Part shown: one piece after another, positions 10,984 to 16,458 of the stretch
Numbering within the stretch: the stretch's first letter is position 1
Layout of the letters: every line of letters starts with the position of its first letter
Assembly (NCBI RefSeq): GCF_003568865.1
Contig: NZ_CP031115.1
Location: 744,001-808,000, forward strand
Source: Rubrobacter indicoceani
Lineage (GTDB): Bacteria; Actinomycetota; Rubrobacteria; Rubrobacterales; Rubrobacteraceae
Reading direction: 5' to 3'
DNA: 64,000 bases
Notes under the pieces: generated by a model
Told to the model about the DNA's origin: nothing
The model's database searches: none
The model's input: only the letters and a program-made list of their open reading frames with translations
Translations under genes and position numbers: made by a program

Positions 10984-12138
10984 CTACGCGGGATACGTTC
11001 CCGAAAGCGTCCGGTCGAGAACCTCGAAGAGACGCGCTACGTCGCGCTCGTCGTTGTATATGTGAGGCGAGACGCGGATGCTCCCGCCGCGCACGCTCAC
11101 AAAGACCCCTTCAGCGGCGAGGCGGGCGGCGAGGTCCTCCGGGGCGTCGGGGCCGAGCCCGAGGCCGATCACATGCCGACACCGCCGCTCTTTCGGGACG
11201 GTTTCTATGCCTCGTTTCCCCGCTTCTTCCTCGATAAGGTCGGTGAGCTTCCCGGCGGTCTCCGAGATGTTTTCGACGCCCCAGTCAAGGATGTGGCGCA
11301 GCGCCTCCGTCGCCATCGGCAGAAGGATGAAGTTGCTCCGCTCGCCGACGTCGTAGCGTCGGGCGCCGGGCTGAAAGTCGCTCGTGTACTCGGAGAGGTC
11401 GGAGAACTTCTCGCTGCCCGCGCGGTTGATCCAGTTGTGTTCGATGGGCCTTCCGTTCCGATGGTCGCCCCGGACGTGCATGAACCCGACCCCGTACGGC
11501 CCGAGCAGCCACTTGTACGCCGCCGCCACAAGAAAGTCCGGCCTCGCCCCCGTCACGTCGAACGGATGCGCCCCGAGCGACTGAATGGCGTCCACCACAA
11601 AGGCCGCCCCGACCTCGCGCGCTCGCTCTCCGATGGCGACGAGGTCCAGAAGCGAGCCGTCCGTCCAGTGGCAGTTCGGGACCGCCACGACGGCCACGCC
11701 CGTGTCGAGCGCCGCAAGCACGGCGCCCGTCCAGTCGTGGTCGGGCGGGCGCGGGACGGTTACGAGCTTCGCTCCGCGTTCTCCGGCCAGCTCGCGCCAC
11801 GGATAGACGTTCGAGGGAAATTGCCCTTCAAGAACTACGATGCTGCTCCCTTTCTCGACGGGGACGTTCGCTGCAGCGACGGCGATGCCGTAGCTTACGG
11901 AAGGAATAAGGGCCACGCCGTCCGCCTCGCCGCCGACCAGCCGGGCAAAGAGGTCGCGGCTCTTCTCCACCTCCTCGAAAAAGGCCGCGGGTGGAATCTC
12001 CCACGGCCTCGAGCACTGCGCCAGCGCCCGCTCGCCGGCCTCGCGCACCGGACGTAGCTGCGGCGACATGTACGAACAGTTAAGGTACGCGATATCGTCG
12101 GGGACCTCGAAAAGCCTTCGAGCGTTGTCCGGGATCAC
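10984..12138 (-). CDS. Class V-fold PLP-dependent aminotransferase
   Basis: A 384-residue PLP enzyme of the cysteine desulfurase/aminotransferase class V fold. Features are IAYLNCSYMSPQ at the N-terminus, VVDAIQSLGAHPFD holding the PLP-ring Asp (about 190), and the Schiff-base Lys in AAYKWLLGPYG (about 212). It is not a canonical IscS/SufS, because the catalytic Cys loop is absent near the C-terminus; an isopenicillin-N-epimerase-like or kynureninase-like role is possible. Its start overlaps the stop of the preceding carotenoid desaturase by ATGA-type overlap, so it sits at the end of the carotenoid operon, which may or may not be functional linkage. Confidence 0.8.
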   Translation of the reverse strand: MIPDNARRLFEVPDDIAYLNCSYMSPQLRPVREAGERALAQCSRPWEIPPAAFFEEVEKSRDLFARLVGGEADGVALIPSVSYGIAVAAANVPVEKGSSIVVLEGQFPSNVYPWRELAGERGAKLVTVPRPPDHDWTGAVLAALDTGVAVVAVPNCHWTDGSLLDLVAIGERAREVGAAFVVDAIQSLGAHPFDVTGARPDFLVAAAYKWLLGPYGVGFMHVRGDHRNGRPIEHNWINRAGSEKFSDLSEYTSDFQPGARRYDVGERSNFILLPMATEALRHILDWGVENISETAGKLTDLIEEEAGKRGIETVPKERRCRHVIGLGLGPDAPEDLAARLAAEGVFVSVRGGSIRVSPHIYNDERDVARLFEVLDRTLSGTYPA

Positions 12139-13544
12139 GTCCGTCCTCCTCCGTGTTTAAGCTTTTTCAGCAGCCTGTCGGTTGAGATCATGGCCCCGCC
12201 GAGCACCGCCGGGATGCCGCCGCCCGGATGCACCGCCGCCCCGACCCGCCAGAGCCAGGGCCGCCTCCGGTCGTTGTAGCGCGGGGTGTGAAACGGCCCG
12301 CTCCTCCAGAACGCCCGGCTTCTCCCGTAGAGCGCACCCCCCGAGCCGCCCCGCTCCGAGAAGTACCGGGGATGCAGCGTGGTCTCGCCCGTGAAGTAGT
12401 CCGTCGCCGGGCGCGAAAGACCGACCGATCTGGAGATGCGCTCTATCTCCCGCTCCACGAAACCCTCCGAAAGACTGTAAGCCCGTCCGTCCGGCGGGGC
12501 GGTGAGCAGCAGCGCGAGCGTTGGTTTTCTGTTCGGGTAGATCTCGCCGGGGGCGTAGTAGTTCACGAAGGCCATCGTCTGGGGCGGTAGGGTGTTTTCG
12601 TCGAGGCTCCGGTGCAGGTCCCCCGGCCTATCCGGTAGAACGACCGAGTGGGGCGGCAGGTCCAGCTCCCGGTCCAGCGCGGCGTATACGGCGATGCCGG
12701 AGCAGGTGAGGCTTCCGCGCCGCTCCCTTCCCGGCAGGAGAAGGGATTCAAGGCCGTCTTCGTCTATCGCCCCGACAACGACGTCGGCCCGGTATTCGCC
12801 GGAGACCGTCGTTACCCTGCCCTCCGAGAGGCCGACGACCGGTTCTGAGAGTCGGATCTCTGCGCCCGAGTCGCTCGCCAGATTCCGAAGCGCAAGGACC
12901 GTCTCGTAGACGCCGCCCTCCGGCACGTAGACCCCGTCGCGAGACATAACAGCGGGCATCGAGGCGTAGAGTGCGGGCGTCTCCGTCGGTCCGACCCCGG
13001 CGTTGAGGGTGTGGATCGCGATGATCTCCCTTAAACCCTCCGGCATCCAGTCAAGCGAACCGAGGTAGCTTTTGGTGGTGAGTCGTCGCCCGTAGGTTTT
13101 CAGCAGCGAGACGAGGGCGGGGAGCGTCCGGCGGTCGAGCGGGTCTGCGGTGAGGAGGTTGGTGATCTCCGGCCCCAGCACCCCGTGTTCGCGCTCGAAC
13201 CTGCGCCACGCATCGTGCCACCTGTGGCCCTCCCCGACGGGGAGCGAGACCGACTCCCTCCTGAAGTGATACCGACCGACCTCCGGCATCCGCAGCAGGT
13301 TCAGGCGGGCGGCGTCCGGGATGGGGCCGTTTTCTGCACAGCGCGACAGGAACCCGTGCCAGACGCCGGGGAAGGTGAAGAGCGACGGCCCGGTATCTAT
13401 TCTCTGTCCGGCCACCTGGATGCGCCGGCTCTTTCCCCCGACGTAGTCAGCCGCCTCGACAACGGTTACCCTGTGTCCGGCTCGGGCGAGAAGCGCGGCC
13501 GCCGCAAGACCGCCGATCCCGGCCCCGATCACGACGACCCTCAC
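12135..13544 (-). CDS. crtD: Carotenoid desaturase, CrtI/CrtD family
   Basis: A 469-residue FAD-dependent desaturase. The dinucleotide motif VVIGAGIGGLAAAALLARAGHRV is at residues 4-26 and GGKS follows at about 37-40. The C-terminal flavin motif is seen in GAAVHPGGGIPAVLGGAMIS. The family covers phytoene desaturase (CrtI) and 3,4-desaturase (CrtD). Overlap with a UbiA-type prenyltransferase, with a CruF-like hydratase gene divergent next to it, points to the 3,4-desaturase of C50 bacterioruberin synthesis; this assignment rests on context. Overlapping starts and stops show one polycistronic unit. Confidence 0.75.
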   Translation of the reverse strand: MRVVVIGAGIGGLAAAALLARAGHRVTVVEAADYVGGKSRRIQVAGQRIDTGPSLFTFPGVWHGFLSRCAENGPIPDAARLNLLRMPEVGRYHFRRESVSLPVGEGHRWHDAWRRFEREHGVLGPEITNLLTADPLDRRTLPALVSLLKTYGRRLTTKSYLGSLDWMPEGLREIIAIHTLNAGVGPTETPALYASMPAVMSRDGVYVPEGGVYETVLALRNLASDSGAEIRLSEPVVGLSEGRVTTVSGEYRADVVVGAIDEDGLESLLLPGRERRGSLTCSGIAVYAALDRELDLPPHSVVLPDRPGDLHRSLDENTLPPQTMAFVNYYAPGEIYPNRKPTLALLLTAPPDGRAYSLSEGFVEREIERISRSVGLSRPATDYFTGETTLHPRYFSERGGSGGALYGRSRAFWRSGPFHTPRYNDRRRPWLWRVGAAVHPGGGIPAVLGGAMISTDRLLKKLKHGGGRT

Positions 13545-14383
13545 GGATACGCCCCGAGCGTCAGGGCCGCGACGAGCAACACCCCGGCGAACGTCCCGGC
13601 GACGTAGGGAAAGGCGATGGAGTAGCGGTAGAGCCTGTGCCCCGTCTCCGGCAGGGGCGAGCGGTACATACCGAGCAGCAGAAACCCCGCGATGGCGGCG
13701 TTCACGAGCGCGACGGGCAGGCTTACAAAGGCGAAAAGCGCCGTCGCGGCAAGCCAGAACGCCCCGCTCCAGAGGACGACGCCCCGGGCGTTCAGGGCCA
13801 CGGCGGTCGTGCGTATCCCGGCGGCGCGGTCCTCGCAGATGTCCTGCACGGCGTCGAAGGTGTGCTTGGCGCAGCTCCAGGACATCAGGCCGAGCGCGGC
13901 GGCCCAGACCGGGGAAGCCCCGAGCGCGAGAGGCGTGAAGACCAGCGGGAAGGCGTAGGCGGCGTTGCTCAGCGAGTCGAGGTAGGGCCGGGCCTTGAAC
14001 CGCAGGGGCGGCACCGAATAGAAAACAAACACCAGCACGTACAGGAGCATCCAGACCAGAGCCGACGCCGGAAGAAAAAAGACGAAGTACAGAAGAAACG
14101 GCAGGTTCGTCGCGACCACCCCGAAAAGGATGAGCCGCACCTCGGAGGACGTTATCCGCGCCCCTTCGAGCGAGCCCTTGCGGGGGTTCTGCGCGTCCGT
14201 CTCCTGATCGAAAACATCGTTTGTACCGTAGATCAGGAGGTTGAACGGCAGCGTTACCCAGAGCAGTACCGGCACCACGCGCCAGTCGAAGAGTTCACCG
14301 GCGAGCCACATCCCGACGATGGTCGTGCCGATGGTGTTGACCCAGAGGACGGGCCGGGAGATGTGGATTAGTCGGGAGAGCAC
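13541..14383 (-). CDS. UbiA-family prenyltransferase (lycopene elongase-like)
   Basis: A 280-residue, about nine-helix UbiA prenyltransferase. The first Asp motif NDVFDQETD is at residues 55-63 and the second DAVQDICED at 177-185, both needed for Mg-diphosphate binding. Next to a desaturase and a CruF-like gene, the best reading is a lycopene elongase (LyeJ/CrtEb type) adding C5 units from DMAPP to lycopene ends. The start is GTG at 14383, 6 bases after a minus-strand TAATAT, so the mRNA is probably leaderless. The stop overlaps crtD as ATGA. Confidence 0.8.
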   Translation of the reverse strand: MLSRLIHISRPVLWVNTIGTTIVGMWLAGELFDWRVVPVLLWVTLPFNLLIYGTNDVFDQETDAQNPRKGSLEGARITSSEVRLILFGVVATNLPFLLYFVFFLPASALVWMLLYVLVFVFYSVPPLRFKARPYLDSLSNAAYAFPLVFTPLALGASPVWAAALGLMSWSCAKHTFDAVQDICEDRAAGIRTTAVALNARGVVLWSGAFWLAATALFAFVSLPVALVNAAIAGFLLLGMYRSPLPETGHRLYRYSIAFPYVAGTFAGVLLVAALTLGAYP

Positions 14384-14400
14384 GTTGGTATATTAGCAGC
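14384..14400. promoter_or_regulatory. Overlapping divergent -10 boxes in 17-bp gap
   Basis: Plus-strand TATATT (14389-14394), with an extended TGG before it, is followed by 6 bases and GTG 14401. Minus-strand TAATAT (14395-14390) is followed by 6 bases and GTG 14383. The two boxes share five bases, and both transcripts would begin at the start codon. Confidence 0.65.
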
Positions 14401-15192
14401 GTGGATTACGCTTCAAGGCAACGGCTCTCACTGGCCCGGACGCTCTCGAAGACCCCGAAACCGCTGCTCGCGGCGGCTTTCGCGTTCTTTGTGGCCGCGC
14501 TTTTCGCCTCGGCTTTCCCGGACGCTCCGGGGCGCGCCTGGACCTCGCTTCTGGCCACGCTGGCGATGGCGCTGCCGGCCTTTGTCGCCCTTGTCGGGTA
14601 TCTCGGGGCTCGTTCGGGGCTTATCGCCCTCTTTACGCTCGGTCTTTTCGGCTATGCGATAGAGGCGGTCGGGGTCGTAACGGGCTTTCCTTACGGCGGA
14701 TTTGAATACTCCGATGCGCTCGGCGGTAAGTTCTTCGGCCTCGTGCCGTACCTGCTCCCGGTCTCCTACGTCCCGCTCGTCATCGGGGCGGTCGGGGCGG
14801 CCTGGCGGTTCGGTTCGTCGCGGCTCGCGTGGGTTTTCAGGTCCGCGCTGCTGCTTATACTTCTCGACGGCGTCCTTGACCCCGGCGCGGTGCAGCTCGG
14901 TTTCTGGAGCTGGTCTGAGGATGGCCTGTACTACGGAGTCCCGCTCTCCAACTACTTCGGCTGGCTTCTCTCCGGAGTGATCGCCTCCTACCTGCTGACG
15001 CTGTTCACCCGCTTCGGACGCTCGGATGTCCTGCCCCGGGCCGGGATGCTCGACGGGGCCATACTCGGCCTTGCATTCTGGATCGGGGTGGCGGTCTTCG
15101 GGGGGCTTGTGATCCCGGTCGTTCTGGGTATCTCTCTGTTCGTCTACCTCATCCACGCCCGCTCGCGGCTCCCGAGAGGCGCAAGGGTTTAA
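14401..15192 (+). CDS. cruF: CruF-like carotenoid hydratase (DUF422 family)
   Basis: A 263-residue membrane protein with about seven helices. The family signature runs YAIEAVGVVTGFPYGGFEYSD (about 80-100), with GLVPYLLPVSYVP and LLDGVLDPGAVQLGFWSW following. These match the carotenoid biosynthesis family (DUF422) that includes the bisanhydrobacterioruberin hydratase CruF. It is divergent from the elongase-desaturase pair across 17 bases, and the three together are the known set for turning lycopene into bacterioruberin. GTG start is leaderless. Enzyme activity itself is inferred. Confidence 0.8.
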   Translation: MDYASRQRLSLARTLSKTPKPLLAAAFAFFVAALFASAFPDAPGRAWTSLLATLAMALPAFVALVGYLGARSGLIALFTLGLFGYAIEAVGVVTGFPYGGFEYSDALGGKFFGLVPYLLPVSYVPLVIGAVGAAWRFGSSRLAWVFRSALLLILLDGVLDPGAVQLGFWSWSEDGLYYGVPLSNYFGWLLSGVIASYLLTLFTRFGRSDVLPRAGMLDGAILGLAFWIGVAVFGGLVIPVVLGISLFVYLIHARSRLPRGARV

Positions 15193-15252
15193 ACTCAGAG
15201 CGGTCAGAGCCGGAACACACGGCCCGAAAAAGTGGAAAGCGAGGAAACCGGG

Positions 15253-16458
15253 ATGAAGTGGGCCTCCGCCATATCTCACAGGACCGCCTTCAAAGAGGCC
15301 GTTCGGGAATGCGTCGAAGGGGTGAGGTCCGGTCTCGGCGGCGAGAGGCCGTCGGTTCTCTTCGCCTTCGCCACGCCGCACTTCGCGGCCAGCTTCGGCG
15401 GCCTCTACGATGACCTCTCGGACGCGTTCGACCCGGAGTGCTTTATCGGGTGTTCAGGCGGCGGCGTGCTCGGGGCCGGGCGTGAGATCGAGGGCTCGCC
15501 CGCCCTCTCCCTTGTCGGGGCGTACCTCCCCGACGTCGAGCTGACCCCCTTTCGCATCGAAGACGGAGAGATGCTCCCGGACCTCGACGGCCCGCCGGAT
15601 GCCTGGGAGAGGCTTCTCGGGGTGGACGCTTCCCGGTCGCCGTCCATCGTCCTGCTCGCCGACCCGTTCTCTTCGCGCACGGAGGCTCTGATCTCCGGCC
15701 TGGACTACGCCTACCCGGACGCCCCGAAGGTCGGCGGCCTCGTGAGCGGCGGTCCATCGCCCGGCACAAACAGCCTGTTCCTCAACGGAGATGTGTTCTC
15801 CGGTGGTTCGGTCGGCCTCACGCTCACGGGCGACGTGCGGGTCGATACGGTCGTCGCGCAGGGCTGTCGCCCCGTAGGAGACCTGATGACCGTTACGGCC
15901 TGCGAGGGGAACTACCTCTACGGCCTCGACGACGCACCGGCCCTTGAAGCGGTGCGCGGAATGTTCGCCGGACTCGAACCGGACGACCTCGAACTCGCCC
16001 GGGGCGCGCTCTTTATCGGCGTGCTGATGGACGAGTTCACCGAGAAGCCCGGCCCCGGTGATTTCCTGATCCGGAACGTCCTCGGCTTCGATCCCGGACG
16101 CGGAACCCTCGCCGTCGGAGAGCAGCTCCAGAACGGCATGCGGCTTCAATTCCACGTCCGTGACGCCCGCACTTCCGCAGAGGACCTGCGCATCCTTCTC
16201 GACGCTTACTCCGAGGTCTCCGGCGACACCCCACCCGACGGCGCGCTTCTCTTCTCCTGTCTCGGACGCGGTCGAAACCTCTACGGCGAACCGGACTTCG
16301 ACTCCTCGCTTCTTGCAGAAAGGTTCGGATCCGTCCCCGTCGGCGGGTTTTTCTGCAACGGTGAGATCGGACCCGTCGGAGGCTCGACCTTTCTGCACGG
16401 CTACACCTCGTCCTTTGCGTTCTTCCGACCAGACTCCACACCGACCGCCGAAAACTAG
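15253..16458 (+). CDS. FIST-domain sensory protein
   Basis: A protein of about 401 residues with a FIST N domain (about 30-225) and FIST C domain (about 240-385). Typical features are VLFAFATPHF, ECFIGCSGGGVLG, APKVGGLVSGG, ALLFSCLGRG and a final VGGFFCNGEIGPVGG with FLHGYTSSFAFF. FIST proteins bind small ligands, probably amino acids, and normally feed a kinase or cyclase, but no effector is fused or adjacent. ATG 15253 is chosen because GAGGAAA precedes it; GTG 15232 has no ribosome site. It is probably transcribed from its own promoter downstream of cruF. Confidence 0.85.
   Translation: MKWASAISHRTAFKEAVRECVEGVRSGLGGERPSVLFAFATPHFAASFGGLYDDLSDAFDPECFIGCSGGGVLGAGREIEGSPALSLVGAYLPDVELTPFRIEDGEMLPDLDGPPDAWERLLGVDASRSPSIVLLADPFSSRTEALISGLDYAYPDAPKVGGLVSGGPSPGTNSLFLNGDVFSGGSVGLTLTGDVRVDTVVAQGCRPVGDLMTVTACEGNYLYGLDDAPALEAVRGMFAGLEPDDLELARGALFIGVLMDEFTEKPGPGDFLIRNVLGFDPGRGTLAVGEQLQNGMRLQFHVRDARTSAEDLRILLDAYSEVSGDTPPDGALLFSCLGRGRNLYGEPDFDSSLLAERFGSVPVGGFFCNGEIGPVGGSTFLHGYTSSFAFFRPDSTPTAEN

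What the first reader, a model, noticed from the sequence alone, without database searches (positions are those of the whole stretch)
14384..14400. Overlapping opposite -10 boxes drive two leaderless carotenoid genes
In a 17-base gap, TATATT on plus and TAATAT on minus share five bases, and each is exactly 6 bases from a GTG start of cruF or the elongase gene. Only one polymerase can bind at a time, which could balance the two sides of the pathway.
Basis: seen in the sequence. Interest (0 to 1): 0.6.

Follow-up and report, generated by a model that had tools for sequence, protein, structure and literature searches.

The report
Shared two-way promoter between carotenoid genes
Two pigment genes that point away from each other appear to share a single 17-base symmetric promoter, with both messages starting directly at their start codons; this is a very compact example of a two-way promoter type already known in bacteria.

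Summary
In the 17-base gap between lyeJ (lycopene elongase, GTG at 14383, minus) and cruF (GTG at 14401, plus), +TATATT (14389-14394) and -TAATAT (14395-14390) share five bases, each 6 nt from its GTG. (1) Both hexamers carry a TGn extended -10, giving a palindromic TGNTANNNTANCA with no consensus -35. (2) The predicted starts lie 18 bp apart with -11A/-7T reciprocally paired, the standard geometry of published bidirectional promoters. (3) Both genes look leaderless across the Rubrobacteraceae: a -10 sits 6-8 nt from the cruF start in 27 of 27 loci and 6-7 nt from lyeJ in 26 of 30. Only the window's genus (2 of 2 species) has the fused version; the gap is 16/17 identical there, beside a cruF N-terminus only 50% identical. 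Other genera have two separate -10s and gaps of 46-85 bases, mostly 46-52. Leaderless, shared-promoter expression is well supported by sequence. The 'one polymerase at a time balances the pathway' reading is not: published work finds no competition at basal activity, the genes act in series, and exclusion is also expected in relatives. New member of a known kind.

The parts
14384..14400 (.). whole intergenic gap = predicted bidirectional core promoter, GTTGG TATATTA GCAGC, near-palindrome TGNTANNNTANCA
14386..14394 (+). extended -10 for cruF: TG(G)TATATT; TG at -15/-14, hexamer -12 to -7 relative to G of GTG 14401
   Evidence: conserved letter for letter in G001
14390..14398 (-). extended -10 for lyeJ: TG(C)TAATAT; TG = + strand CA at 14397-14398
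   Evidence: the -10 keeps this position in front of lyeJ in relatives as (TGG)TATATT
14401..14401 (+). predicted transcription start = first base of the cruF GTG (leaderless)
   Evidence: inferred from 6-nt spacing; 27 of 27 family loci have TANNNT 6-8 nt before an in-frame cruF start
14383..14383 (-). predicted transcription start = first base of the lyeJ GTG (leaderless), 18 bp from the cruF start
   Evidence: inferred; 26 of 30 family loci have TANNNT 6-7 nt before the lyeJ start
14401..15192 (+). cruF-like hydratase gene (bisanhydrobacterioruberin hydratase family), 263 aa
   Evidence: Pfam Caroten_synth 7.2e-45; NCBIfam TIGR03460 8e-40, 137.3 bits against a cutoff of 154.7
13541..14383 (-). 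lyeJ-type UbiA-family prenyltransferase (lycopene elongase), 280 aa
   Evidence: NCBIfam NF010119 430 bits, above cutoff; Pfam UbiA 2e-23
12135..13544 (-). CrtI/CrtD-family desaturase gene, overlaps lyeJ by 4 bases (same transcript likely)
   Evidence: TIGR02734 1.3e-38, below cutoff; synteny kept in relatives
10984..12138 (-). class V aminotransferase gene, overlaps the crtD-like gene by 4 bases
   Evidence: Pfam PF00266 3.7e-28; synteny
15232..16458 (+). FIST-domain protein gene downstream of cruF
   Evidence: Pfam FIST 9e-35 and FIST_C 1.2e-24; next to cruF in relatives as well

Best explanation
The 17-base gap is one symmetric, -35-independent bidirectional promoter. RNA polymerase with the main sigma factor recognises TGNTANNNT on either strand of the same 13-bp near-palindrome and melts it. 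It then starts transcription 7 nt downstream of the -10, on the first base of the GTG of cruF (rightward) or lyeJ (leftward), 18 bp apart. Both mRNAs are leaderless and are translated without a Shine-Dalgarno site; lyeJ is likely co-transcribed with the overlapping crtD-like and aminotransferase genes. The main consequence is probably coupled, low-level co-expression of successive steps of C50 carotenoid synthesis from one element, with mutual exclusion mattering only if one direction were strongly activated. Shown: sequence, geometry, uniqueness, conservation. Inferred: start sites, sigma factor use, lack of leaders, co-expression.
For: Exact geometry: 18 bp between predicted starts, -7T and -11A reciprocally paired, -12T on both strands, as described for bidirectional promoters. 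TG at -15/-14 on both strands, and no sigma-70 -35/-10 pair found here. No Shine-Dalgarno-like purine run in the gap (sequence). TANNNT before candidate starts peaks at spacers 6 (22) and 7 (14) against 1-9 at nearly all other spacers in 464 kb of this genome (one outlier, 15 at spacer 29). TGNTANNNT-N6-RTG: 43 matches in the genome against 16 for the reversed control. In relatives cruF has TANNNT 6-8 nt before an in-frame start in 27 of 27 loci, and lyeJ has it at 6-7 nt in 26 of 30. The sister species G001 keeps 16/17 bases, while lyeJ third codon positions are 58% identical and the first 30 nt of cruF 50%. The double-TG pattern occurs in 3 of 396 phylum genomes; two are this locus in the two congeners, and the third lies inside another gene.
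Against: No 5'-end or reporter data. Only two species carry the fused form. The lyeJ -10 (TAATAT) matches TATAAT at only 4 of 6, and neither strand has T at -18 because both starts are GTG. CruF in this genus is about 9 codons longer at its N-terminus than in relatives, so its start rests on being the only conserved ATG/GTG/TTG candidate.
Confidence: 0.78

Rival explanations
1. Competition switch: the shared -10 makes lyeJ and cruF expression mutually exclusive, so that polymerase orientation balances the early and late pathway steps.
For: Two polymerases cannot occupy the shared -10 together; steric exclusion at such promoters is stated in PMC12825309, and strong activation in one direction represses the other there.
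Against: In the same work all five promoters at basal activity showed no competition. The enzymes act in series. In other genera separate -10s with most starts about 47-53 bp apart would also exclude each other. No activator site is known here.
Confidence: 0.15
2. Only one direction, most likely lyeJ, truly uses this -10; cruF is expressed mainly from a promoter inside lyeJ or by another route, and the symmetry is partly coincidental.
For: The -10 in this position is conserved for lyeJ across the family, while cruF uses its own -10 in other genera. TANNNTA symmetry at the lyeJ -10 also occurs in 7 relatives without a cruF start behind it.
Against: Both congeners have TG, a TATATT hexamer and a GTG at exactly the right spacing for cruF, kept through strong flank divergence; no other -10 plus start is seen in front of cruF in this genus.
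Confidence: 0.12
3. The near-palindrome is the operator of a dimeric regulator controlling both genes, not (only) a promoter.
For: 17-base near-palindrome between divergent genes, conserved in two species.
Against: The symmetry is exactly that expected from two opposed extended -10s. In other genera the lyeJ half is kept without its mirror half. The pattern with both starts occurs nowhere else in the genome, so no regulon is seen.
Confidence: 0.06

Closest known systems
Bidirectional promoters with a shared symmetric -10 (Warman, Grainger and colleagues; PMC12825309, PMC10268837)
   Same: One -10 read on both strands, starts 18 bp apart, -7T/-11A reciprocal, weak or no -35
   Different: Here both strands also carry the TG extended -10, both products are predicted leaderless mRNAs so the promoter fills the whole gap, and the -18T is absent because the starts are GTG
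Leaderless TANNNT promoters of Actinobacteria (Mycobacterium tuberculosis, PMC3898074)
   Same: TANNNT just upstream of a start codon, GTG allowed, no -35 motif, TGNTANNNT as stronger variant; divergent prpD / Rv1129c are both leaderless
   Different: In the passages read, divergent leaderless genes are not described as sharing one -10
lyeJ / cruF intergenic region of other Rubrobacteraceae genera
   Same: Same divergent genes, both with -10 boxes 6-8 nt before the start in most loci
   Different: Gap 46-85 bases with two separate, non-overlapping -10 boxes

Membership tests
18-bp bidirectional promoter (Warman/Grainger type) | -10 hexamers overlapping on opposite strands so that -11A of one pairs with -7T of the other | tested here: met
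   14390 A/T and 14394 T/A serve both strands
18-bp bidirectional promoter (Warman/Grainger type) | two transcription starts on opposite strands about 18 bp apart, mapped experimentally | not testable with these tools
   positions 14383 and 14401 are predictions
18-bp bidirectional promoter (Warman/Grainger type) | T at -18 of each start (common, not obligatory) | tested here: not met
   14383 is C on + and 14401 is C on -; the TG extended -10 may compensate (inference)
Extended -10 promoter | TG at -15/-14 upstream of TANNNT, no need of -35 | tested here: met
   TGG TATATT (+), TGC TAATAT (-); no -35/-10 pair
Leaderless gene | -10 to start codon spacing of 6-7 nt, no Shine-Dalgarno, conserved across relatives | tested here: met
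Leaderless gene | mRNA 5' end at the start codon | not testable with these tools
   no RNA data held
CruF (bisanhydrobacterioruberin hydratase) | score above curated cutoff of TIGR03460 | tested here: not met
   137.3 against 154.7 bits; Pfam Caroten_synth well above cutoff, so family level only

The most novel reading that the evidence does not exclude
Promoter sharing arose by start-codon capture: the lyeJ -10 in part of the family is already symmetric (TANNNTA), i.e. a latent reverse promoter. In this genus the cruF reading frame took a GTG exactly 6 nt behind it, lost its own -10, and gained the second TG, turning two promoters into one double-extended bidirectional promoter that is the entire intergenic region.
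Probability: 0.3. Interest if true: 0.5.

Novelty: new member of a known kind. Interest (0 to 1): 0.38.

Why it matters
It is close to the smallest possible two-gene control region: 17 bases hold two extended -10s and both leaderless starts. Its relatives show the same gene pair with two separate promoters, so the effect of fusing promoters on co-expression and noise can be tested with natural variants. It also extends bidirectional promoters to leaderless gene pairs outside the well-studied bacteria.

Tried and rejected
A general architecture of the genome or family was rejected: the loose palindromic pattern has 46 matches against 37 for the reversed control in 39 genomes, and most checked lack long ORFs on both sides. 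A simple 30-bp deletion producing the short gap was considered but is not favoured: in several relatives the conserved part of CruF lies only 4-8 bases further from lyeJ, so the extra cruF codons occupy what is intergenic DNA in relatives. Polarity (fused form derived or ancestral) could not be settled: the genus is poorly placed in the LyeJ tree (support 58/90). The 2021 paper that first described these promoters is not held. A search for papers on overlapping divergent promoters with leaderless genes found none.

Full report
What is there. The gap between the two divergent genes is exactly 17 bases, GTTGGTATATTAGCAGC, at 14384-14400. TATATT lies at 14389-14394 on the plus strand and TAATAT at 14395-14390 on the minus strand. 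They share 14390-14394, and each ends 6 bases before a GTG. The genes are a UbiA-family lycopene elongase (280 aa, minus, NCBIfam NF010119 at 430 bits) and a CruF-like hydratase (263 aa, plus, Pfam Caroten_synth 7e-45; just under the TIGR03460 cutoff). No in-frame start lies upstream of either GTG before a stop. The in-frame stop before lyeJ is the TAA inside its own -10.

Both hexamers are preceded by TG at -15/-14: TG-G-TATATT on plus and TG-C-TAATAT on minus. The gap is therefore a near-palindrome, TGNTANNNTANCA, i.e. two opposed extended -10 elements. This fits the absence of a sigma-70 -35/-10 pair at this site. Most bases of the gap do double duty: the TG of one strand lies in the spacer between -10 and start of the other.

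Chance. CAY-N5-TANNNTA-N5-RTG is found once in the window (2 of 100 shuffles had a match) and once in the 3.08 Mb genome. With TG on both sides it is found once in the window and in 0 of 100 shuffles. In 396 genomes of the phylum the stricter pattern hits three: this locus in the two species of the window's genus, and one site inside an unrelated gene. The loose pattern is not clearly enriched in the family (46 against 37 for the reversed control), so this is an individual case, not a common layout.

Leaderless starts. In 464 kb of this genome (363 called genes), TANNNT before candidate starts peaks at spacers of 6 (22 cases) and 7 (14), against 1-9 at nearly all other spacers, with one outlier of 15 at spacer 29. 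TGNTANNNT-N6-RTG gives 43 genome matches against 16 for the reversed control. In the family, cruF has TANNNT 6-8 nt before an in-frame start in all 27 loci examined, and lyeJ has it at 6-7 nt in 26 of 30. Leaderless initiation of both genes is thus a likely family trait, although no RNA data were available. Leaderless TANNNT genes with GTG starts are well documented in M. tuberculosis (PMC3898074).

Comparison across relatives. The block FIST - cruF <> lyeJ - crtD-like, often followed by the aminotransferase, is kept in the family. Outside the window's genus the lyeJ-cruF gap is 46-85 bases (mostly 46-52) with two separate -10 boxes. In both species of the genus the gap is 17 bases and 16/17 identical. 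By contrast, the first 30 bases of cruF are 50% identical and lyeJ third codon positions 58% identical; by my arithmetic, 16 or more of 17 at 58% has a probability of about 0.001. In 7 loci of other genera the lyeJ -10 is already a TANNNTA heptamer. That suggests a latent reverse promoter which cruF could have captured. The LyeJ tree does not resolve whether the fused form is derived.

How it most likely works. The geometry is that of published bidirectional promoters: starts 18 bp apart, with -7T and -11A reciprocally paired (PMC10268837, PMC12825309). RNA polymerase would bind in either orientation and start on the first base of either GTG. In E. coli, five such promoters showed none at basal activity, and competition appeared only when one direction was strengthened. 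Moreover, separate promoters as close as those of the relatives should also exclude each other. The simplest function is coupled expression of successive steps in C50 carotenoid synthesis. The pathway order (LyeJ and CrtD before CruF) is taken from established knowledge of bacterioruberin synthesis, not tested here.

Limits. Start sites, sigma factor, absence of leaders and co-expression are inferred. Only two species carry the fused form. The species was not identified; the relatives' records are named Rubrobacter or Rubrobacteraceae.

Noticed in passing
window 15232-16458 and relatives L091, L114, L131, L139, L161, L190: A FIST-domain (sensory) gene sits directly downstream of cruF across the family; why a FIST protein travels with carotenoid genes is unexplained.
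   Followed up: partly
window 10984-12138: A class V aminotransferase overlaps the crtD-like gene by 4 bases and keeps that place in relatives; its link to carotenoids is unclear.
   Followed up: no
L042 (G018) 1501-1523 and L034 (G002) 1501-1523: Two other 17-base CAY-N5-TANNNTA-N5-RTG sites with long ORFs on both sides; possible further leaderless bidirectional promoters.
   Followed up: partly
L048-L050 (three species of one other genus): Palindromic CAY/RTG sites kept between species with a clear ORF on one side only; may be bidirectional promoters making a non-coding RNA on the other side.
   Followed up: no
L020, L022, L026, L028 upstream of lyeJ: Four relatives lack TANNNT at leaderless spacing before lyeJ and have longer gaps; two of them lack an RTG or TTG at the usual start. 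lyeJ initiation seems to differ there.
   Followed up: no
G028:C1:1036193-1037031: lyeJ is split in two pieces with a TGA inside in this genome; broken gene or assembly error.
   Followed up: no
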